This document shows, piece after piece, positions 187-13,000 of a DNA stretch of 13,035 nucleotides (within the stretch, counting starts at the first letter, position 1; the number at the start of each line of letters is the position of its first letter). The stretch spans positions 1-13,035 of the forward strand of contig JBKPCR010000532.1 in the NCBI GenBank assembly GCA_046727435.1, read 5' to 3'. Origin of the DNA: CAVPRW01 sp046727435 [NCBI: bacterium] (GTDB lineage Bacteria > Tectomicrobia > Entotheonellia > J063). A program made the translations under genes and the position numbers. The notes under the pieces were generated by a model. That model did not search any database, was not told the DNA's origin, and saw only the letters and a program-made list of their open reading frames with translations.

Positions 187-722
187 CGTCACATCTCCCA
201 GAGCGAGCATACTTGCCGCGTCTGCACCCTACTCCCGGGGCTGCTGGGGCCGAGGCAGGGGCCAGTGGCGATCACGCGACAGCGTTGGATGAGCCCAGTT
301 AGCATCACCACCCCCTCGACTTGATGGAAGTGGGGAACGATCATATCCTAATACCGAATCTCGTGCGGTGTATAGCAAAAATAAGGCACATTTTCTCCGT
401 CGCGGGCAGACAACGCACAGGGCGGAGGACTACCGCTGACGGTCGTGTATGCTGCGGTCTACTAGCTTGCCTTTGTCTGGCAGATGCGGTATGTAGGAAG
501 GCCAGCAGGGGTTCTGAGTCCGTAGCTAGCAGGCTGGTACAAGCTGCCGGGCAGGGCCAGGAGGCGTAGGGATTGTTAAACATGGCTCGTGCAGGTGGTG
601 GACCTCCTCCAAGCCCACGAATGCGTGACCTCTGGACTCCTCAAATGGCAATGCAAACTACCGGCCCATCAGGCAACCAACGTCATTCGTAGCCGCCATC
701 CATCATGTTTGGAGATCCCGCT
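187..722. other. Divergent intergenic region, no gene seen
   Basis: This 536-bp spacer separates two divergent genes. I read both strands. The short open frames in it (for example 321-569 plus and 341-583 minus) give low-complexity peptides rich in Arg, Ser and Ala with no family resemblance and no ribosome binding site. I saw no tRNA, rRNA, CRISPR or insertion-sequence ends. Promoters for both flanking genes should lie here, but I found no -35/-10 pair good enough to report. The only clear site is GGAG at 711-714, the ribosome binding site of the peroxiredoxin, 8 nt before its ATG. Confidence 0.5.
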
Positions 723-1193
723 ATGACAGATTTACGCTTTGGTCAACCCGCGCCTGACTTCACCCTACCCTCCACCTCAGGCGCCGACATCACGCTATCG
801 GCGCTCCGGGGGCAGGACGTGGTGCTCGTTTTCTACTGCTTCGACTGGGGCAGCATTTGAACGCCGGAGCTCCTCGGCCTGGTCAAGGTCGATCCGGAGA
901 TCCGGCAGCGCGGTGCAGCGATCCTACCCATCAGTGCCGATAGCCCCTTCTCGCACGCCGCATACACGAAGGCCCAGGGATTCCCCTTCCCACTTCTGAG
1001 CGACATCCACCGCACCGTCATCCGCGCCTATGGCGTCCTCGACGAGGCCCGCAATGTGGCCTGGCGCTCCACCTTCGTGGTAGACCGGGACGGCACGCTA
1101 CGCTGGGGGCAGGTGGGCGATCGTCAAATGGTGCGGGACGGAACGGAGATTTTGCGCGTCCTCGATCTGCTAACACAATTGCGGGCGACATGA
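723..1193 (+). CDS. AhpC/TSA-family peroxiredoxin, putative selenoprotein (in-frame TGA at the peroxidatic Cys position)
   Basis: Reading TGA at 858-860 (codon 46) as an amino acid gives a complete 156-residue thioredoxin-fold peroxiredoxin ending in TGA at 1191-1193. Visible family features are the N-terminal GQPAPDFTLPSTSG (7-20), the strand VVLVFY (33-38), the active-site segment FDWGSI-U-TPEL (40-50), FPLLSD (89-94), AYGV (102-105) and WRSTFVVDRDG (114-124), which includes the Arg expected to activate the peroxidatic residue. In relatives the codon-46 position, in FDWSPVCTxEL-like segments, is the peroxidatic Cys. The enzyme should reduce hydrogen peroxide or organic hydroperoxides using a thiol donor. 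The start is supported by GGAG 8 nt upstream. A hairpin fitting a bacterial SECIS follows the TGA (870-899). Oddities are Cys39 in place of the usual active-site Pro, Gly43 in place of the usual Thr/Ser, and no Cys after codon 46. The alternatives are a recent Cys-to-stop mutation or a sequencing error. The frame stays clean for 110 further codons, which argues against old decay. Confidence 0.78.
870..899 (+). promoter_or_regulatory. Candidate bacterial SECIS hairpin for selenocysteine insertion at 858-860
   Basis: Just after the in-frame TGA, 874-880 pairs with 886-892: seven base pairs, one of them G-U, closing a five-base loop GGUCA at 881-885. Below it, 870-873 (CUCC) pairs with 896-899 (GGAG) across a three-base bulge at 893-895. 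Twenty bases separate the TGA from the first loop base. Known bacterial SECIS elements lie inside the coding region just after the UGA, with a G at the start of a small apical loop roughly 16-37 nt away. The E. coli fdhF element has the same GGUC in its loop. The pairing was worked out by eye and no folding energy was computed. Confidence 0.6.
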
Positions 1194-2146: not shown

Positions 2147-3469
2147 TCACAACGTAAAATTAAACTGCTCGACCAGTGCTCCGGGCAGGCGGCTGCTCCC
2201 AGTCGAGCGTTCGTGGTAGGTGCTGGGGTCCAGGATGAAGTCGCGTTCGGCCGTGAGGCCCAAAAGATGCTCGCCTAATAGGCGGTAAATGGTTTCATCG
2301 AAGCGCATGACGCTCAAAGGAGCCTGGATCACACCCCCTTCTACCCAGAAGGTGGCAAAGCGCGTCATGCCCGTGATGCGGCAGGCTGAGCGGTCGGAAT
2401 AGTTAAGGTACCACAGATTATTGATGTACACCCCGGTGTCGAGCCGCTGCAATACATCGTCGCGCACGATATCGCCGGCGGCCATCTCGACCGACTCTGG
2501 CGCCTCAGCGATGGAGGCGCCGTTCGTGGGCACTCCGTATTCCTTGGCCGAACGCGGTGACACAAGACAGTCGTGGAAGACACCGGCCTCGATGAGCGTC
2601 ACCTGATCCGGTCTGATGAATCCAGCTGCCTGAAAATTCGGTGAGACGCCATCGCGGGTGTTCTCACGCATGGTGACGGTTGGGTGCAGATAGACGCCTT
2701 CCTCCACCATCTTGAGCAGCGTGGTCTGCTTCGTACGATGATCTTTGAGACCAAAACCACTCCAGGCGAGCATCTCGAGAATGTCATAGAGAGCTGCGGG
2801 AGCCAGGTAGACACGATAGCGCCCGGGGGGGATGATGTGTGGTGGACGCCTCAGGACCTCGAGCTGCGCTGCCGCCTCTGTGACCTTACGCATAAAGACG
2901 GTGGGCTCCCAGACGAACCCAGCATAGCTCGTCTTGACGGCCTTATCGTGTTGATAATAAACACTCCAATCACAGTTGAAGGTAAAGCTTTCAAACCAGT
3001 TCCGCTGTCCGAGCACATTCGCAAAGCCGGCGTAAATGCCGCCAGCCGCATAAATGCCGACCAGATCTCGACCACTGCCGGCGTCAAGGACGGCAGCAAC
3101 GGCCTCAGCCCGATCAGGGAGACGGTTCTCCCCCTGTTGCACGGTGGAGTTCACGGTGGTGGCATAGAGGAGATACGGATCCTCGGGAAGATACGGAAGC
3201 TGCTCCCGCAGTTCGGTGAGCAATGCGCCGATTCGGGCACGGTCGCTGTCAAAATCTCCAGAGAGCGCAATCTCCGCCCCCGCGTGTCGTCTATCGTGGA
3301 TAAGGTCCAGGGCCAGAAAGCGCTGAACGACAGTCCCAGCCTGGCGTATGGCGCTGCGGTTGAAGCGCACGAAGTCGGAATCCTCGGCGTGAAAGGTACA
3401 GGTATAGAACTCATCCGCGAGCAGTGACGCGGTGATAGCGTCGGCAAGCGCGTAAAAGTAGTCCTGCAT
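2147..3469 (-). CDS. tldE: TldE/PmbA-family subunit of the TldD-TldE protease
   Basis: This 440-residue protein resembles the PmbA/TldE side of the modulator-of-gyrase family. It lacks the HExxxH zinc motif, as expected of the non-catalytic partner. Recognisable stretches are the N-terminal YTCTFHAEDSDFVRFN region (22-37), the mid-region HPTVTMRENTRDGVSPNF (about 263-280), and the C-terminal GVYINNLWYLNYSDRSACRITG (about 347-368). The last of these matches the family's conserved segment before the final beta structure. TldE pairs with TldD to form a cytoplasmic peptidase that degrades unfolded peptides and, in some bacteria, processes modified peptides such as microcin B17. The gene starts 3 nt after the tldD stop, with GGAG 8 nt before its ATG, so the two are almost certainly co-translated. 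It ends in TGA, showing that TGA is a normal stop in this genome. It could be named PmbA, the same family. Confidence 0.88.
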   Translation of the reverse strand: MQDYFYALADAITASLLADEFYTCTFHAEDSDFVRFNRSAIRQAGTVVQRFLALDLIHDRRHAGAEIALSGDFDSDRARIGALLTELREQLPYLPEDPYLLYATTVNSTVQQGENRLPDRAEAVAAVLDAGSGRDLVGIYAAGGIYAGFANVLGQRNWFESFTFNCDWSVYYQHDKAVKTSYAGFVWEPTVFMRKVTEAAAQLEVLRRPPHIIPPGRYRVYLAPAALYDILEMLAWSGFGLKDHRTKQTTLLKMVEEGVYLHPTVTMRENTRDGVSPNFQAAGFIRPDQVTLIEAGVFHDCLVSPRSAKEYGVPTNGASIAEAPESVEMAAGDIVRDDVLQRLDTGVYINNLWYLNYSDRSACRITGMTRFATFWVEGGVIQAPLSVMRFDETIYRLLGEHLLGLTAERDFILDPSTYHERSTGSSRLPGALVEQFNFTL

Positions 3470-3472
3470 CGT

Positions 3473-4906
3473 CTATTCTCCACCAAAAACTTCGACGTTG
3501 GCGAACAGACAGGCCGGTGCGGCATGTCCCGTGCGCATGACCTGATTCGGTTCGCCCTTGCCACAATTCGGCGTGCCCATGATTTCCACAGTGTCGCGGT
3601 TGCCGACCATCGCCAGGCTGCGCCAGAAGGTGGCAGAGATGCCACGGTAGTTCGGGTTTTTCACCACCGTCGTGAGGCGACCCCCTTCGATCAACTGGCC
3701 CCACTCGCAGCCAAACTGAAACTTGTTGCGCGAGTCATCAATGGACCAGGAGCAGTTGGTCCGCATGTAGATGCCGCGGTCTATAGCGGCAATCATCTCG
3801 TCCAGGCTGGCGTTGCCCGGCTCGAGGTTGATGTTGGCCATGCGGTCGATGGGGGGGCGATTCCAACTCGAAGCACGAGCATTGGCGACTCCTGGAACAT
3901 TGGCGCGGATCTGTGAGGTGCGTCCACCGAGGGCACGCTGCAAGATGCCGTTCTGGATGAGGTACTCACGACGCGCGGGTTGGCCATCGTCGTCGAAGCC
4001 ATAGCTCACAAACTGCTCAGGGTTGGTGGGGTCAAAGGTGATGTTCAGCAGGTCTGAACCGTAGCGGTAGGTCCCGAACATGTCGGGCGTCACAAAGCTC
4101 GTGCCCGCGTAATTGCGCTCATCGCCGAGGATGCGGTCGAGCTCCAAAGGGTGCCCGACGGACTCATGGACTTGTAAACTCACCTGGTCTGGCGCCAGCA
4201 ACACGTCCATTGTGCCCGAGGGGCAATTGGGCGCCACGAGCAATTGCAATGCCTCTTGGGCTATGCGAGGGGCAGCGGTACGAAAGCCGACGTGTTCGAG
4301 GATCTCCATGCCCCCCTGACGGCAGAAGCCTCGCCCGCCAAAGGTGCGTGTCTGCGTCTCCGCTCCAGCGTTGGCTGTGGCGCTGAGCATGGGCACGAGA
4401 TAGCGAAAACGCTGCTCGACATGGCCGCCGTCGGCTGTGAGGTAGAGCGTGTCGACTGCCGTATGCCATAGCGACGTTTCCCAATCGACGATGCGGTCGT
4501 CGGTCTTGAGCCGCGCGCACTCGCCCCGTAGCAAGTCGATCTTCTCAGACAACGGCACACTGGGCCAAGGTTGGCGCTCCACACTGCTGTACTCACCATG
4601 AGGTGGCGCGACGATTAGCTGCGCGAAATCCACCACGCTCTGGCGCGCACTCAGCCTTGCCCAGTCGTGCGCCTGCTCAGCGGCACGGCGCAGACCACTG
4701 AGGCTCAAGTCGCTCGTCGCAGCATACCCCATGCCACGGCCAGCATAGACCGTCAACATGGCGCCACTGTCCTCTGAGGTCGCAAAGGGCTGGACGACAT
4801 CTTGACGTACGGCGAGGTACTCGGAGCGCTCCCTGACATAGCGTAACGAGCAGAAATCCACCGGCGGCACCGCCTGGCGGAAGCGTTCTGCAAGACGTAC
4901 GTCCAT
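3473..4906 (-). CDS. tldD: TldD-family zinc metalloprotease, catalytic subunit
   Basis: This is the catalytic partner of TldE, 477 residues from the chosen start. The zinc site is visible: VHESVGHPLELD carries HExxxH with His247, Glu248 and His252, and Cys448 in GTPNCGKGEP matches the cysteine that completes metal binding in TldD. Other family segments are GRGMGYAATSDLS (57-69), LLAPDQVSLQ just before the metal site, FDDDGQPARREYLIQNGIL (304-322) and the C-terminal TGHAAPACLF. The complex acts on peptides threaded into its cavity in the cytoplasm. An in-frame ATG at 4921 would add five residues. I prefer 4906 because AGGAG lies 4 nt upstream of it, whereas nothing comparable precedes 4921. 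It heads a two-gene operon with tldE. No modified-peptide precursor was found nearby, so general peptide turnover is the safer reading. Confidence 0.92.
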   Translation of the reverse strand: MDVRLAERFRQAVPPVDFCSLRYVRERSEYLAVRQDVVQPFATSEDSGAMLTVYAGRGMGYAATSDLSLSGLRRAAEQAHDWARLSARQSVVDFAQLIVAPPHGEYSSVERQPWPSVPLSEKIDLLRGECARLKTDDRIVDWETSLWHTAVDTLYLTADGGHVEQRFRYLVPMLSATANAGAETQTRTFGGRGFCRQGGMEILEHVGFRTAAPRIAQEALQLLVAPNCPSGTMDVLLAPDQVSLQVHESVGHPLELDRILGDERNYAGTSFVTPDMFGTYRYGSDLLNITFDPTNPEQFVSYGFDDDGQPARREYLIQNGILQRALGGRTSQIRANVPGVANARASSWNRPPIDRMANINLEPGNASLDEMIAAIDRGIYMRTNCSWSIDDSRNKFQFGCEWGQLIEGGRLTTVVKNPNYRGISATFWRSLAMVGNRDTVEIMGTPNCGKGEPNQVMRTGHAAPACLFANVEVFGGE

Positions 4907-5024
4907 GCCTCTCCTCCTCATGGTGTTGAAGCCAATACACAGTCATCCGCCCCCTTTCCGCAGCCAGCTCCATCATCGGCTTCGGACGGTTATCTTATGG
5001 CATGATGATCATGTAGACAGGAGT

Positions 5025-6987: not shown

Positions 6988-9900
6988 ATGTCACTGGCGC
7001 CAAACGAAGCGTTCTCGTCGCCGAACTTCGCGTTCCTCGTAAAGTACGACGAGGTGCTTGTCCACCATGCCGCGCTCGCCGAACGCTATGTCTTCGATGA
7101 CCCGAACTCTGCGCTGATCAAACTCCGCCAGTTTGCTGAGCTCTTGGCCCAACACGCTGCGGCCTATACCGGCGTTGTAGTCGAAGCCTACGAATCCCAA
7201 CGCGAACTGATCGACAAGCTGTGGGACCGCCAGATCATCAACGCGCAAGTCTCTCAATTGTTTCATGGACTGCGCAAAGCTGGCAATGAAGCGGCACATC
7301 AGCATACCGGCGACCGACGCGAGGCGCTCCACCAGTTGCAGATGGCACGGAAGCTCGCCATCTGGTTCCACAAATCTTTCGGCGGCGACACACACTTCAA
7401 GGCCGGGCCATTCGTCCCACCCCCGGACCCGCACCAGGCGGAACGCGAGCTCCATACCGAGCTTGAACGCTTACGCCAAGCCTTGGTAGCCACTCAAGAG
7501 CAAATAGTCGGGACCCAACAGCTCGTCGAAGAACATGCTCGGCAGCGTCAAGAGGCCGAGACTGCTGCAACACGTTCCTACAATGACCTGACGGCAGCAC
7601 TAGAACTGGCCGCCGAAACCGAACAACAACTCGAACAAGAACGACAGCGGTTTCAGCTCCACCTCGCCGACCTGCAAGCCCAGGTGGTAGCGGCACCCAT
7701 CGAGCAACGAGCGGCTGTCGTCGAACTGGCGCAACACGAGGCTGAGGAGCTGGACCTCGATGAGGCCGCCACCCGTCGGATCCTTGATAGACAGCTGCGT
7801 GAGGCTGATTGGGAAGCAGACACTCAAACATTGACTTACGCTGCCGGCGCACGACCGGTGAGGGGACGCCACCTGGCCATCACGGAATGGCCAACCGCCA
7901 ATGGACCGGCGGACTACGTGCTGTTCGTTGGCCTGACCCCTGTGGCCGTGGTGGAAGCCAAACGCCGACGACAGGACGTGGCGGGTTCGATCGAACAAGC
8001 CAAGCGCTATAGCCGCGGCTATATGGTTGCGGCCGATCATCAATCGCCCGGCGGACCATGGGGTGAGTACACGGTGCCGTTCCTGTTCGCCACGAACGGC
8101 AGGCCTTTTCTGCGCCAGATCGCCGAGAAAAGCGGTATCTGGTTCCTCGATGCACGGCACGACACCAACCACGCGCGAGCCCTGGAAGCGTGGTATACTC
8201 CCGAAGGTCTGTCCCAGCTCCTCCAACAAGACATCGCCACTGCCAACGCCCGGCTGCAAGCCGAACCGACCGATTACCTGCCACTGCGCGACTACCAGGC
8301 ACAAGCCGTCCGTACCATCGAACGCCACATCGCGGCGGGCCAGCGCGAGCTGTTGGTGGCCATGGCGACCGGAAGCGGGAAGACGATCACCTGCATTGGG
8401 CTAGCCTACCGGCTGGTGAAATTAAAACGTTTCCGCCGCATCCTGTTTCTCGTTGACCGTACCACCCTGGGCGACCAGGCGTCTGACAAACTGAAAGACG
8501 TGCGGCTGGAAAACCTGCAATCATTCCCCGATATCTATGACGTCAAAGAGCTCGGCGACCTCCGGCCTGAGGCCGATACCCGCCTGCACATCGCGACGAT
8601 ACAAGGCATGATCAAGCGTATCTTGTATCCCTCCGATGAAGCACAGCCGGTGCCCGTCGACTGGTACGACTGCGTCATCATCGATGAGTGCCATCGCGGC
8701 TACAACCTGGATCAGGAGATGTCCGACGCCGCCCTGCAGTTCCGCAGCGAGTCCGACTACATCTCAACGTATCGCCGTGTGCTCGACCACTTCGACGCGG
8801 TCCGCATCGGCTTGACGGCCACTCCAGCGCTGCACACCACGGAAATTTTCGGCCCACCCGTCTTTGAATACTCCTATCGCCAGGCCGTTATCGACGGCTG
8901 GCTGGTCGACCACGAGCCGCCGTATCGGCTCGTCACCAGGCTCGCCGAAGAAGGCATGACATGGGAGCGCGGCACCGAAATGAAGGTCTACGATACCCAC
9001 ACCGGCCAGCTCCAACTCTTCAACACGCCCGACGAAGTGTCCGTGGAAATCATCGACTTCAACCGCAGGGTCATCACCGAGAATTTTAATCGCACGGTGT
9101 GCCAGGCACTGGCCGAACATCTCGATCCGGCCCTGCCTGGGAAGACATTGATCTTCTGCGTCAACGACATGCATGCTGACCTGGTCGTGCGCCTGCTGAA
9201 ACAAGCCTTCGACAACCGCTACGGCCCCATGCCTGACGACACCGTGAAGAAGATCACCGGAGCGGCCGACCAACCAGCCCAGATCATCCGCCGCTACAAG
9301 AACGAGCAATTGCCCAAGGTGGCCGTCACGGTGGACTTGCTGACCACGGGTGTCGATGTGCCGGAGATCGTCAACCTGGTGTTCATCCGTCGCGTGCGTA
9401 GCCGTATTCTGTTTGAGCAGATGCTGGGGCGCGCCACGCGTCTATGCCCCGACCTCTACGGCGCCAGCCTCGACAAAGAGCGGTTCTACATCTTCGATGC
9501 GGTGAATATCTATGACGAGCTGCAAGATGTCTCAGACATGCATCCGGTGGCCACCCGGCCGTACATGACCTTCGGGCAGTTGGCGCAGGAGCTGCGGGAT
9601 ATTGACGACGAGGCATTTCAACACATGGTCAAAGGGGAGCTTCTGGTCAAGCTCCGTCGCAAGCGCCTCACCGATCAGCAGGTGGAGGACCTCGTCGCCC
9701 GAACCGGGATGAATCGGCGGCAACTGCTCGACCATCTGCGGCAATCGACCCCACAAGACATCGGGCAGTGGTTTTCGCGGCACCCCGAGGTGGCGAACAT
9801 CCTCGACGAAGGCCACTGGCGCGGCACGAAGTTCATTGTCTCAGAGCACGAAGACGAATTTCTGCGCGTCGAGCGCGGCTATGGTCAAGCCACACGGCCG

Positions 9901-10401
9901 GAGGACTATCTGGAAACGTTTCGTCGCTTCATCACCGAGAACCTGGATCAGATCCTAGCGCTGATCGTCGTCACCCAGCGGCCGCGCGATTTGACGCGGG
10001 CCCAGTTGCGCGAATTGCGGCTACAGCTCGATCAGGCTGGCTTTAGCGAAGCGAACCTGCGAACGGCCTGGCGAGAGACCACCAATCAGGACATCGCGGC
10101 GTCAATCGTGGGTTATATCCGACACGTCGCGCTCGGACAGCCACTGCTGGCGCACAGTCAGCGTGTCCAAGCCGCGATGCAGAGGATTCTTGCCAGCCGG
10201 CCATGGACCGAGCCGCAACGCCGATGGCTCGAACGCATTGGCAAGCAACTGGAGCAAGAAGTCGTGGTGGATCGTGAGGCAATTGACAGCGGCCAGTTCA
10301 AGGCCCTGGGCGGCTATCAGCGGCTCAACGTGGTTTTTAACGGTCAATTGGACGACATCCTGCGCGACATCGCCGAGGCGATGTGGCAACCAGCGGCGTA
10401 A
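6988..10401 (+). CDS. hsdR: Type I restriction enzyme R subunit (HsdR), nuclease and DNA translocase
   Basis: The protein is 1137 residues, normal for this branch of HsdR. In order: a DUF4145-like helical domain (about 11-130, with SPNFAFL, LIKLRQFAELLAQ and GNEAAHQH); a Glu/Gln-rich coiled coil (about 150-235); a PD-(D/E)xK nuclease (about 250-400) with Asp309 in GPADY and Glu323/Lys325 in VVEAK; and an SF2 helicase-type translocase with Walker A ATGSGKT (460-466), DECH (566-569), LTATP (609-613), LTTGVDVP (785-792) and QMLGRATR (811-818). A C-terminal EcoEI-type domain that docks on the methyltransferase follows. It pulls unmethylated DNA past the HsdM2S core using ATP and cleaves at a distance. 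All visible catalytic motifs are intact. The start places the conserved SPNFAFL ten residues in, as in relatives, although the ribosome binding site is weak (AGAGAAG). It is the first gene of the R-M-S operon. Confidence 0.96.
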   Translation: MSLAPNEAFSSPNFAFLVKYDEVLVHHAALAERYVFDDPNSALIKLRQFAELLAQHAAAYTGVVVEAYESQRELIDKLWDRQIINAQVSQLFHGLRKAGNEAAHQHTGDRREALHQLQMARKLAIWFHKSFGGDTHFKAGPFVPPPDPHQAERELHTELERLRQALVATQEQIVGTQQLVEEHARQRQEAETAATRSYNDLTAALELAAETEQQLEQERQRFQLHLADLQAQVVAAPIEQRAAVVELAQHEAEELDLDEAATRRILDRQLREADWEADTQTLTYAAGARPVRGRHLAITEWPTANGPADYVLFVGLTPVAVVEAKRRRQDVAGSIEQAKRYSRGYMVAADHQSPGGPWGEYTVPFLFATNGRPFLRQIAEKSGIWFLDARHDTNHARALEAWYTPEGLSQLLQQDIATANARLQAEPTDYLPLRDYQAQAVRTIERHIAAGQRELLVAMATGSGKTITCIGLAYRLVKLKRFRRILFLVDRTTLGDQASDKLKDVRLENLQSFPDIYDVKELGDLRPEADTRLHIATIQGMIKRILYPSDEAQPVPVDWYDCVIIDECHRGYNLDQEMSDAALQFRSESDYISTYRRVLDHFDAVRIGLTATPALHTTEIFGPPVFEYSYRQAVIDGWLVDHEPPYRLVTRLAEEGMTWERGTEMKVYDTHTGQLQLFNTPDEVSVEIIDFNRRVITENFNRTVCQALAEHLDPALPGKTLIFCVNDMHADLVVRLLKQAFDNRYGPMPDDTVKKITGAADQPAQIIRRYKNEQLPKVAVTVDLLTTGVDVPEIVNLVFIRRVRSRILFEQMLGRATRLCPDLYGASLDKERFYIFDAVNIYDELQDVSDMHPVATRPYMTFGQLAQELRDIDDEAFQHMVKGELLVKLRRKRLTDQQVEDLVARTGMNRRQLLDHLRQSTPQDIGQWFSRHPEVANILDEGHWRGTKFIVSEHEDEFLRVERGYGQATRPEDYLETFRRFITENLDQILALIVVTQRPRDLTRAQLRELRLQLDQAGFSEANLRTAWRETTNQDIAASIVGYIRHVALGQPLLAHSQRVQAAMQRILASRPWTEPQRRWLERIGKQLEQEVVVDREAIDSGQFKALGGYQRLNVVFNGQLDDILRDIAEAMWQPAA

Positions 10402-10447
10402 GCGGATAGAGGCGCAGTGCCACATGATGGATACCAGGAGAGGCTGA

Positions 10448-11878
10448 ATGACCACTCAGGAGATCGTGGCCAAACTGTGGAACCTATGCCACGTGTTGCG
10501 CGACGACGGCATCACGTATCACGAGTACGTGACGGAGTTGACGTTTTTGTTGTTCCTCAAGATGGCCAAGGAGACGGGAATCGAGAACCAGATTCCCGCG
10601 GGCTATCGCTGGGACGATCTGAAAGGCCGCGATGGGGTTGAGCAGCTCGCCTTCTATCGGGCGCTGCTGGTGCATCTGGGCAACGAAGGAGCTGGTCGCG
10701 TGCAGGCCATCTTTCACGACGCCAACACGGCGCTGAGTCAACCGCGCAACCTGACCAGGTTGGTGGAAAGCATTGACTCGCTGGATTGGTACTCGGCCCG
10801 CGAGGAAGGGCTGGGGGATCTGTATGAAGGATTGCTGGAGAAGAACGCCAGCGAGAAGAAGTCGGGAGCGGGGCAATATTTTACGCCGCGACCGTTGATC
10901 GAGTGCATGGTCAACTGTATCCAGCCGCAGCCGGGCGAGATCGTGCAGGACCCTGCGGCCGGCACCGGTGGTTTCCTGATCATGGCCGATCGCTACATCA
11001 AGCAGCGCACCGACGACTTATTCGACTTGCCGGAGAAAGAGCAGGATTTCCAACGCCGGCAGGCGTTTGTTGGCGTCGAACTGGTGCCCGACGCGCATCG
11101 GCTCTTGTTGATGAACGCCATGCTACACGGCATTGAAAGCGACCTGCTCCTCGGCGACACGTTATCACCCATGGGAGCGCGGTTACCCAGAGCCAACATC
11201 ATCCTGACCAACCCGCCGTTCGGCACTAAACGGGGCGGCGGGCGGCCCACGCGCGACGACTTTACCTTCATCACCGGCAACAAGCAGCTCGCTTTCCTGC
11301 AGCATGTCTATCGTGGTCTGAAGCCCGGAGGACGGGCGGCCATCGTCATGCCCGATAATGTGCTGTTTGAAGAAGGCACAGGCACGAAGATCCGCGCCGA
11401 CCTGATGGACAAATGTAACCTGCACACGATTCTGCGGCTGCCCACCGGCATCTTCTACGCACAGGGCGTCAAAACAAATGTCCTGTTCTTCACACGCGGT
11501 GCAACGGATACGGGCAACACCAAGCATCTCTGGGTCTATGACCTTCGGACCAACATGCCAGCGTTTGGCAAACGCACGCCCCTGACGCACGAGCACTTTG
11601 CGGAGTTTGAAAGGTCCTATGGCAGCAAGAGCGATGGCACCGGCGAGCGCATCGACCAGGCTGAAGCAGGCCGCTTCCGCTGCTTCACCCGCGAGGCGAT
11701 TGCCAAACGTGGCGACAACCTCGACATCAGTTGGCTCAAGGATGATGATGCCCACTCAGCTGACGGCTTACCGGAACCCGACGAGATCGCCGCACTGATC
11801 CGCGACCGGCTTCAAACGGCAATGGAGGAGATTGAGGCTCTGACCACCTTGCTTGAAGGCGAGGAGGTCGAAGTATGA
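10448..11878 (+). CDS. hsdM: Type I DNA methyltransferase M subunit (HsdM), N6-adenine
   Basis: The protein is 476 residues. It has the N-terminal HsdM helical domain (about 5-130), then the methyltransferase core: GAGQYFTPRPL (140-150), the AdoMet-binding DPAAGTGGF (168-176), GVEL (209-212), GDTL (236-239) and the catalytic NPPFG (255-259) typical of N6-adenine methylation. Two HsdM with one HsdS protect the host by methylating the target, and the same core directs HsdR to unmethylated DNA. AGGAG lies about 7 nt before the ATG, 46 nt after the hsdR stop. It ends with TGA overlapping the hsdS start (ATGA), so translation is coupled. All motifs are intact, so the enzyme is probably active. Confidence 0.97.
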   Translation: MTTQEIVAKLWNLCHVLRDDGITYHEYVTELTFLLFLKMAKETGIENQIPAGYRWDDLKGRDGVEQLAFYRALLVHLGNEGAGRVQAIFHDANTALSQPRNLTRLVESIDSLDWYSAREEGLGDLYEGLLEKNASEKKSGAGQYFTPRPLIECMVNCIQPQPGEIVQDPAAGTGGFLIMADRYIKQRTDDLFDLPEKEQDFQRRQAFVGVELVPDAHRLLLMNAMLHGIESDLLLGDTLSPMGARLPRANIILTNPPFGTKRGGGRPTRDDFTFITGNKQLAFLQHVYRGLKPGGRAAIVMPDNVLFEEGTGTKIRADLMDKCNLHTILRLPTGIFYAQGVKTNVLFFTRGATDTGNTKHLWVYDLRTNMPAFGKRTPLTHEHFAEFERSYGSKSDGTGERIDQAEAGRFRCFTREAIAKRGDNLDISWLKDDDAHSADGLPEPDEIAALIRDRLQTAMEEIEALTTLLEGEEVEV

Positions 11879-13000
11879 GTGAGATGAACGATGGCCAACC
11901 GTCAGGCTGGGTCAAGACAACACTCTCCGAAGTGGCATCTGCATCAAGAGCGAAAGCCGAGCCGGGTAACTTCGGCAATGTACCGTACATTGGACTTGAG
12001 CATATTGAAGGTGGTAGCAATCGGATCCTCAGTATTGGGAGGGTAACAGATGTCAAAAGCACTAAGAGTATTTTCCAGCGCGGTAATGTATTGTATGGGA
12101 AGCTTAGACCTTACTTGAAAAAAGTCTGTAGGCCAGATTTCGACGGTGTTTGTTCGACAGACATTCTTGTCTTTCCAGAATCACCTAATATAGACAACGG
12201 CTATCTGCTGTTCTTCCTCTCAAAGCAATCAACAGCAGACTATGCAACTCAAAATTCTAACGGAATCAATCTGCCTCGGATCAGCTCTCGTGCATTGGGT
12301 GAGATTGAGTTTCCGCTACCACCCCTCGCTGAGCAGCGGCGAATTGTGGCGAAGATCGAGGCGTTGCTGGAGCGGAGTCGGCAGGCGCGGGAGGCGCTTT
12401 CGGAAGTAGCGCCACTGCTGGAGCAGTTCCGACAGTCAGTGCTGGTCGCTGCCTTCCGCGGTGATCTGACCGCCGACTGGCGCGCCGCTCACCCAAACGC
12501 CGAACCCGCCAGCGAACTCCTCCACTGCATCCGCGTCGAACGCCGCCGCCGCTGGGAACAAGCCGAACTGGCCAAATACAAAGCCCCAGGCCAAAAACCG
12601 CCGGAGAACTGGAAGGATAAGTACAAGAAGCCTGAGCCGGTTGATGATGCTGATCTGCCGGAGCTACCTGAGGGCTGGTGCTGGGTGAGGTTTGATGAGA
12701 TCCTTTGTGAACTGCGTAACGGTGTTTCTCCAAAACCGAATGACGCACCACCGGGAACTCCAATCTTACGAATCAATAGCGTGCGACCACATAAGGTGCT
12801 GCTTGACGACTTAAGGTATCTGCCTAACGCGGATAATTACAGCAAAACATACCGCCTAAGAGATCAAGACCTTCTTTTTACACGGTACAACGGTACCCTT
12901 GAGTTGGTTGGAGTTTGTGGCCTTGTCCGAGAGCTAGGCGATCTAGTGGTATTGTATCCAGACAAGTTAATACGCGCTCGCATTGAGCACGAGCTAGTGG
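11875..13000 (+). CDS. hsdS: Type I specificity subunit (HsdS), 3'-truncated
   Basis: The gene starts inside the hsdM stop (ATGA overlap) and stays open to the window end, but only 375 codons are genuine because adapter sequence begins at 13001. The first target-recognition domain is about 1-150, with YGKLRPYL at 74-81. The central conserved region has PPLAEQRRIV (149-158), a coiled coil, SVLVAAFRGDLTADW and a charged linker. The second recognition domain begins near LPEGW (264-268) and includes LLFTRYNG (333-340). The end of this domain and the C-terminal conserved repeat are missing. HsdS sets the bipartite DNA target, which cannot be read from sequence alone. By hand count GC is about 43% at 12001-12240, about 67% at 12361-12600 and about 48% at 12721-12960. 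A translation continued past 13000 adds an artificial tail (AVSYTHLRAHET). Confidence 0.95.

What the first reader, a model, noticed from the sequence alone, without database searches (positions are those of the whole stretch)
723..1193. Hidden selenoprotein peroxiredoxin: TGA exactly at the peroxidatic cysteine
A full-length AhpC/TSA-type frame is interrupted only by TGA at 858-860, where the family has its catalytic Cys (FDWGSI-U-TPEL). The 110 codons after it keep family motifs, including the catalytic Arg115, with no frameshift or second stop. TGA also ends tldE and hsdM, so UGA-to-Trp reassignment is unlikely. Sec in place of the peroxidatic Cys is established for some bacterial peroxiredoxins, such as the PrxU of Eubacterium acidaminophilum. 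This member has an unusual active-site segment and would be missed or called a pseudogene by standard gene callers.
Basis: partly seen in the sequence, partly recalled or inferred. Interest (0 to 1): 0.88.

Follow-up and report, generated by a model that had tools for sequence, protein, structure and literature searches.

The report
Selenocysteine peroxiredoxin lacking its threonine
A bacterial gene that looks broken by a stop codon most likely encodes an antioxidant-type enzyme with selenocysteine in its active site, from a family that has lost an active-site residue usually thought essential.

Summary
In detail: 723-1193 (+) is a full AhpC/TSA (peroxiredoxin-fold) frame with one in-frame TGA (858-860) at the peroxidatic position. 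It is very probably a selenoprotein gene. In the 95-genome phylum that holds the Rokubacteria hit G001, orthologues (60-82% identical) carry TGA there in 36 of 36 readable copies besides the window. A 7-bp hairpin, its loop 20-21 nt after the TGA, pairs in 255 of 259 cells with a GC/CG-swapping closing pair; synonymous resampling did not reach it in 2000 draws. Codons after the TGA are under purifying selection. selB passes its cut-off in 33, and tRNA-Sec in 30, of the 37 orthologue-bearing genomes. The family has also replaced the canonical Pro and Thr (PxxxTxxC) by invariant Cys39 and Gly43 (CxxxGxxU); 25 of 26 other Sec-bearing relatives read keep Thr/Ser. It fails the PrxU cut-off, and its motif is not in a 2026 review's table. 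Known kind, new variant. Untested: the window's own genome (none held; host unsettled), Sec incorporation, and activity without the Thr.

The parts
723..1193 (+). Sec-peroxiredoxin-like gene, 156 codons including Sec46; terminator TGA 1191-1193
711..714 (+). GGAG, Shine-Dalgarno-like, 8 nt before the ATG
   Evidence: sequence
858..860 (+). in-frame TGA read as selenocysteine (Sec46), aligned to the peroxidatic Cys
875..891 (+). bacterial SECIS-like hairpin: arms 875-881 and 885-891; in the window the closing pair is G.A, so the loop is GGUCA, 20 nt after the UGA
837..839 (+). Cys39 codon at the canonical Pro position of PxxxTxxC
   Evidence: invariant in 36 of 36 rows of A1
849..851 (+). Gly43 codon at the canonical catalytic Thr position
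   Evidence: invariant in 36 of 36 rows of A1
1065..1067 (+). Arg115 codon, the catalytic Arg position
   Evidence: invariant in 36 of 36 rows of A1

Best explanation
The gene encodes a peroxiredoxin-fold selenoprotein: the UGA at codon 46 is decoded as selenocysteine by SelB and tRNA-Sec, directed by the hairpin that follows it. Supported by sequence: fold family, conserved TGA, conserved hairpin, selection on downstream codons, Sec machinery in relatives. Inferred: Sec46, activated by Arg115, attacks a hydroperoxide and becomes a selenenic acid; with no C-terminal resolving-Cys tail, it is then reduced by an external thiol, or through a selenenylsulfide with Cys39, which stands where peroxiredoxins usually have a proline. 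Gly43 replaces the threonine, so the usual hydroxyl that helps cleave the peroxide is absent; I infer that selenium reactivity, and perhaps the Cys39 thiol, makes up for it. The confidence given is for a Sec-decoded, redox-active Prx-fold protein; that the reaction is peroxide reduction I put at about 0.6, and the Cys39 bond at about 0.35.
For: TGA at codon 46 in 36 of 36 readable orthologues besides the window, Cys in none. A 7-bp hairpin with its loop 20-21 nt after the UGA pairs in 255 of 259 cells; the closing pair is GC in 20 and CG in 13, with at least 4 changes on the tree. Synonymous resampling gives at most 5.70 of 7 pairs in 2000 draws against 6.89 observed. dN/dS after the UGA is 0.11-0.35 in the 11 pairs computed. 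selB is over cut-off in 33 and tRNA-Sec in 30 of 37 orthologue-bearing genomes. selA and selB are adjacent, with a TCA-anticodon tRNA-SeC upstream, in G092 and G001. Prx fold: pLDDT 89.6; solved matches are Prx1-type and AhpE. Residues 39 (C), 43 (G), 46 and 115 (R) are invariant in 36 of 36.
Against: No sel gene can be sought in the window's own genome, and its host is unsettled. A review says the catalytic Thr can be replaced by Ser but by no residue lacking OH (PMC8533274, passage), which argues against ordinary peroxidase activity. Folded one by one, only 29 of 37 copies meet the bSECIS rules, and 1547 of 4451 control codons also do. The independent-pairs test of the covariation had too few pairs to reach significance. 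The window's own closing pair is non-standard (G.A). Three bearing genomes (G002, G080, G090) pass neither the selB nor the tRNA-Sec cut-off. Many orthologues have a second Cys near residue 77 (majority residue in the consensus), so Cys39 need not be their resolving residue; the window and G092 lack it.
Confidence: 0.82

Rival explanations
1. A selenoprotein, but not a peroxidase: a thiol/selenol-disulfide oxidoreductase or similar reductase in which Cys39 and Sec46 form the working pair. (A branch of the best explanation as regards Sec, a rival as regards the reaction.)
For: The Thr is Gly in 36 of 36 and Cys39 is invariant. Cys39 is the only Cys in the window protein. For Cys-Prx an OH residue is said to be needed at the Thr position (PMC8533274, passage).
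Against: Sequence and fold are peroxiredoxin, with Arg115 kept. No CxxC/UxxC spacing. No neighbour recurs across the whole family that would suggest a partner (neighbours were clustered, not annotated by profile).
Confidence: 0.3
2. A pseudogene with a nonsense mutation, or a sequencing error at 858-860.
For: It looks so to a caller using the standard code (no such ORF); the G004 copy (L005/L035) has a downstream frame break.
Against: The same TGA in 36 of 36 other readable copies, 35 of which keep the frame to the end; purifying selection; conserved hairpin.
Confidence: 0.02
3. UGA is reassigned (to Trp or Gly) in the host, so no Sec is involved.
For: None found in the calls made.
Against: TGA ends two window genes and this gene itself; relatives carry selA, selB and a TCA-anticodon tRNA-SeC; the codon stands at the catalytic Cys position.
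Confidence: 0.01
4. The contig comes from a host without Sec machinery that acquired the gene, so this copy is not decoded even though its family is.
For: Window GC 59% against 67-74% for the relatives' loci measured. TldD is 66% identical to a copy in another phylum, while only 2 of the 95 genomes have one at E 1e-60, 37-38% identical. No synteny with the nine relatives' contigs compared.
Against: The window copy keeps the frame, the TGA and six of seven hairpin pairs, and its hairpin region folds better than 199 of 200 shuffles.
Confidence: 0.1

Closest known systems
PrxU, selenocysteine peroxiredoxin first reported from Eubacterium acidaminophilum (NCBIfam NF040737)
   Same: Peroxiredoxin fold with Sec at the peroxidatic position; it is the best NCBIfam match.
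   Different: 74.7 bits against a curated cut-off of 270. Sec-Prx are described as PxxxTxxU/TxxU (PMC13188914; PMC1088965); this family is CxxxGxxU.
AhpE, Rv2238c of Mycobacterium tuberculosis
   Same: Best solved-structure match by sequence (E 7.3e-22; profile 1.8e-27); similar length and fold (TM 0.90 by target length); ungapped active-site register.
   Different: AhpE has P, T and C where this has C, G and Sec.
Other Sec-bearing Prx relatives in the 95 genomes and in the phyla of G107 and G098 (centre records titled Vicinamibacterales and Anaerolineae)
   Same: Sec at the same place, same fold family.
   Different: 25 of 26 read keep Thr or Ser three residues before Sec, one has Leu (L081); at the Pro position they have P, V, L or, once with Thr kept, C (L080) (read by eye).
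Prx-SUH thiol peroxidase (NF045827, CxxU) and Prx-like UxxC/UxxU and UxxS selenoproteins of the review's table
   Same: Sec-bearing Prx-like proteins (PMC13188914).
   Different: Different Sec motifs; NF045827 is not among the 14 NCBIfam matches at E 0.01.

Membership tests
Bacterial selenoproteins | In-frame UGA at a catalytic position, conserved in homologues | tested here: met
   TGA in 36 of 36 readable orthologues besides the window
Bacterial selenoproteins | bSECIS: stem-loop after the UGA, loop 3-9 nt and 16-37 nt away, G in the first two loop positions, MFE -7.5 or lower (rules read in PMC13188914 section 5) | tested here: met
   Window: loop GGUCA, 20 nt after the UGA, -17.7 kcal/mol; 29 of 37 by single folds, control codons 1547 of 4451; comparative support
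Bacterial selenoproteins | selA, selB, selC, selD in the same genome | not testable with these tools
   No genome held for the window. In relatives; selD was not searched
Bacterial selenoproteins | Selenium shown in the protein | not testable with these tools
   Needs 75Se labelling or mass spectrometry
Peroxiredoxin (AhpC/TSA) superfamily | Pfam AhpC-TSA above its gathering score | tested here: met
   126.3 bits against 26
Peroxiredoxin (AhpC/TSA) superfamily | PxxxT(S)xxC active-site motif | tested here: not met
   CxxxGxxU in 36 of 36. Not universal in the superfamily: an atlas gives Thr 71.7% and Ser 16.3% of Prx-like proteins (PMC2757866, passage)
Peroxiredoxin (AhpC/TSA) superfamily | Catalytic Arg | tested here: met
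   R115 invariant in 36 of 36; that this is the catalytic Arg is by family position, recalled
Peroxiredoxin (AhpC/TSA) superfamily | Peroxidase activity | not testable with these tools
   No assay
PrxU equivalog NF040737 | Score over the curated cut-off of 270 bits | tested here: not met
   74.7 bits

The most novel reading that the evidence does not exclude
A lineage of Sec-peroxiredoxins has dispensed with the catalytic Thr and carries instead an invariant Cys seven residues before the Sec, so that peroxide (or disulfide) chemistry runs on selenium, Arg115 and an intraloop Cys39-Sec46 selenenylsulfide: a catalytic design not described for peroxiredoxins in the papers I searched.
Probability: 0.3. 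Interest if true: 0.75.

Novelty: new variant of a known kind. Interest (0 to 1): 0.5.

Why it matters
The gene is invisible to standard gene callers, yet kept in 37 of the 95 genomes searched. Its active site breaks a stated rule of peroxiredoxin chemistry (an OH-bearing residue three before the catalytic residue; PMC8533274), so it offers a natural test of whether selenium makes that residue dispensable. It also fits a report, cited in the 2026 review, of a Methylomirabilota MAG with 63 predicted selenoprotein genes; that GTDB places Rokubacteria in that phylum is from recall.

Tried and rejected
Sequencing error, nonsense pseudogene and UGA reassignment: rejected. PrxU membership: rejected by score. 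Gene neighbourhood: clusters of flanking ORFs recur in at most 10 of 37 loci, the widest one (by eye AAA/MoxR-like) downstream in a set of loci; nothing recurs across the family (most loci were held only 1.5 kb to each side). Placing the host by TldD: the best full-length match (66%, G244) is among 235 genomes of the phylum of G103. The 31 genomes chosen from there have no orthologue of the Prx (best E 7.5e-23), nor have 377 genomes of that phylum at E 1e-35. The tools did not name that phylum; L016's title says Proteobacteria, and I only suspect Myxococcota. Viral contigs: no relative of TldD or of this protein (such scans find close relatives only). Plasmids: 367 records with matches, all under 60% identity. 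The single-sequence bSECIS rules are weak evidence alone, and the independent-pairs test lacked power. fold_alignment also drew five pairs before and across the UGA, which I do not interpret. Distance between Cys39 and Sec46: not measured, the model's coordinates were not among the files.

Literature seen. PMC13188914: outline with abstract, sections 5 and 7 (parts 1-2 of 3), part 2 of 3 of the reference list, and passages. PMC1088965, PMC8533274, PMC2757866: passages only. PMC12013277: term search, no hits. Deng 2026 (reference 66) and the E. acidaminophilum paper: not read, seen as references. Haft & Tolstoy 2025: not held. Other papers: search listings only. 'Not catalogued' refers to the review's table and these searches alone.

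Full report
Observation. The frame 723-1193 (+) reads MTDLRFGQPAPDF...VFYCFDWGSIUTPEL... through one TGA at codon 46 to a terminal TGA. Pfam AhpC-TSA covers residues 7-128 (E 8.8e-37). The best solved relatives by sequence are M. tuberculosis AhpE and then 2-Cys peroxiredoxins; Sec46 falls on the catalytic Cys with no gap in the active-site segment. TGA also ends TldE and HsdM.

Relatives. A scan of the genome collection returned 29 loci. The only ones at 69% identity or more were four Rokubacteria contigs: L001, L002 and L005 carry TGA at the codon, L003 is masked there. That scan uses exact 8-residue patterns, so it finds close relatives only. In the 95-genome phylum of G001, full matches at 60-82% identity lie in 35 genomes; G003 is partial (masked) and G004 broken, making 37 bearing genomes. 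The sequences fetched gave 36 besides the window in which codon 46 can be read: all 36 are TGA, none Cys. Thirty-five of them keep the frame to the end; L035 does not, and it is the G004 copy seen as L005. In a quick tree the window branches first and G092 (82% identical) next within the family (support 89 and 95, no bootstrap).

SECIS. In the 37 sequences, offsets 17-23 pair with 27-33, counted from the T of the TGA as 0 (window 875-881 with 885-891): the stem begins 14 nt after the TGA and the loop 20-21 nt after it. 255 of 259 cells pair, 98.5%; sliding the partner by 1-3 columns gives at most 47.1%. The closing pair is GC in 20, CG in 13 and non-standard in 4, the window among the last with G.A; on the tree the GC/CG state needs at least 4 changes. 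Since these bases also encode protein, I resampled synonymous codons with pooled usage: 2000 draws gave a mean of 5.22 and a maximum of 5.70 of 7 pairs against 6.89 observed; all seven pair in 33 of 37 observed and in at most 11 in any draw. Against: folded singly, 29 of 37 meet the published bSECIS rules, but so do 1547 of 4451 other codons of these genes. The independent-pairs test had one pair on well-supported branches and four on all, too few for significance. The window's 51 nt from the UGA fold at -29.2 kcal/mol, z -4.3; L001, L002 and L005 have z -1.4, -1.4 and -2.5.

Selection. NG86 dN/dS after the UGA is 0.11-0.35 in the 11 pairs I chose (window-G092 0.154, with dS about 1, so uncertain); before it, 0 to 0.64.

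Machinery. selB passes its cut-off in 84 of 95 genomes and in 33 of the 37 bearing the gene (misses G002, G050, G080, G090; G050 has a fragment); 2 of 14 control genomes also pass. tRNA-Sec passes gathering in 79 of 95 and in 30 of 37 (misses G002, G003, G042, G056, G059, G080, G090), with stricter filters in force; 5 of 14 control genomes pass. ARAGORN finds a TCA-anticodon tRNA-SeC in the three loci examined, L101-L103. selA and selB are adjacent in G092 and G001. selD was not sought. The 37-genome counts are read by me off the listings. As most of the 95 genomes have selB, presence and absence give no test here.

Active site. In the 36-row alignment C39, G43, residue 46 and R115 are invariant; the broken L035 copy, not in it, shows the same C, G and U. 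Against the canonical PxxxTxxC this is Pro to Cys and Thr to Gly. Of 26 other Sec-bearing Prx loci read (13, 13), 25 have Thr or Ser at the Thr position and one Leu; this count is by eye from the printed motifs, and the loci are those that were fetched, not a full survey. A review states that the Thr can be replaced by Ser but not by a residue lacking OH (PMC8533274, passage). An atlas gives Thr 71.7% and Ser 16.3% in Prx-like proteins (PMC2757866, passage), so some 12% of those have neither, and a Gly there may have precedents that I did not see. The fold model (36-row alignment, U as C) has pLDDT 89.6, lowest in residues 41-50 (mean 69), and matches peroxiredoxin I (Z 26.1, rmsd 1.1, 153 aligned) and AhpE (Z 24.5, rmsd 1.6, 151 aligned). 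The window protein's only Cys is C39; many orthologues have another near residue 77.

Distribution. With the family profile, true orthologues score 1.8e-78 to 2.7e-83 (5 bearing genomes; non-bearing G005 4.3e-38). Elsewhere the best are 9.1e-37 in 396 genomes of the phylum of G107 (13 matches at 1e-30) and 2.4e-32 in 400 of the phylum of G098 (5 matches), and none in 377 of the phylum of G103 at 1e-35; in these large searches only 9 or 10 candidates per genome were scored. The 15 of those 18 matches that were fetched (L127-L141) keep Thr or Ser. So among what was searched the CxxxGxxU form was found only in the phylum of G001 and in the window.

Host. The window's GC is 59% against 67-74% for the relatives' loci measured. 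Of eight window proteins, only HsdR (30% over 236 residues) hits any of the nine relatives' contigs compared. The best full-length TldD match is 66%, in another phylum (235 genomes); in the 95 genomes only 2 reach E 1e-60, at 37-38%. The organism is unassigned, and Sec machinery in it is inferred only from the intact gene.

Known or new. The 2026 review lists 119 selenoprotein families/subfamilies (PMC13188914): Prx as TxxU, Prx-like as UxxC/UxxU, a cd02970 form as UxxS and Prx-SUH as CxxU; no GxxU peroxiredoxin appears. It cites a Methylomirabilota MAG with 63 predicted selenoprotein genes. I therefore call this a new variant of a known kind. What it does (peroxidase or thiol oxidoreductase) is inference.

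Noticed in passing
   Followed up: partly
G001 (L030 lies in it): 10 of 16 matches to this protein carried one TGA inside the match: probably many further Sec-redoxin genes in one genome. Not each was checked for the TGA's place.
   Followed up: no
L127-L130, L132-L136, L137, L138, L141: Further Sec-peroxiredoxins with Val at the Pro position and Thr/Ser kept (such as FYVLAFTGGU, FYVFDFSPGU) in genomes of the phyla of G107 and G098.
   Followed up: no
L080 (G032): A Sec-Prx paralogue with Cys at the Pro position but Thr kept (FYCLDWTPGU), a possible intermediate.
   Followed up: no
L005/L035 (G004): The orthologue lacks about 46 codons after the UGA and changes frame: a decayed copy or an assembly fault.
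   Followed up: partly
window 2147-4921 (-): TldE/TldD pair; the TldD is 66% identical to a copy in the phylum of G103 and distant from those in the 95 genomes.
   Followed up: partly
window 6988-13000 (+): Type I restriction-modification genes: HsdR with EcoEI_R_C and HsdM by Pfam; the HsdS-like frame named by position and recall.
   Followed up: no
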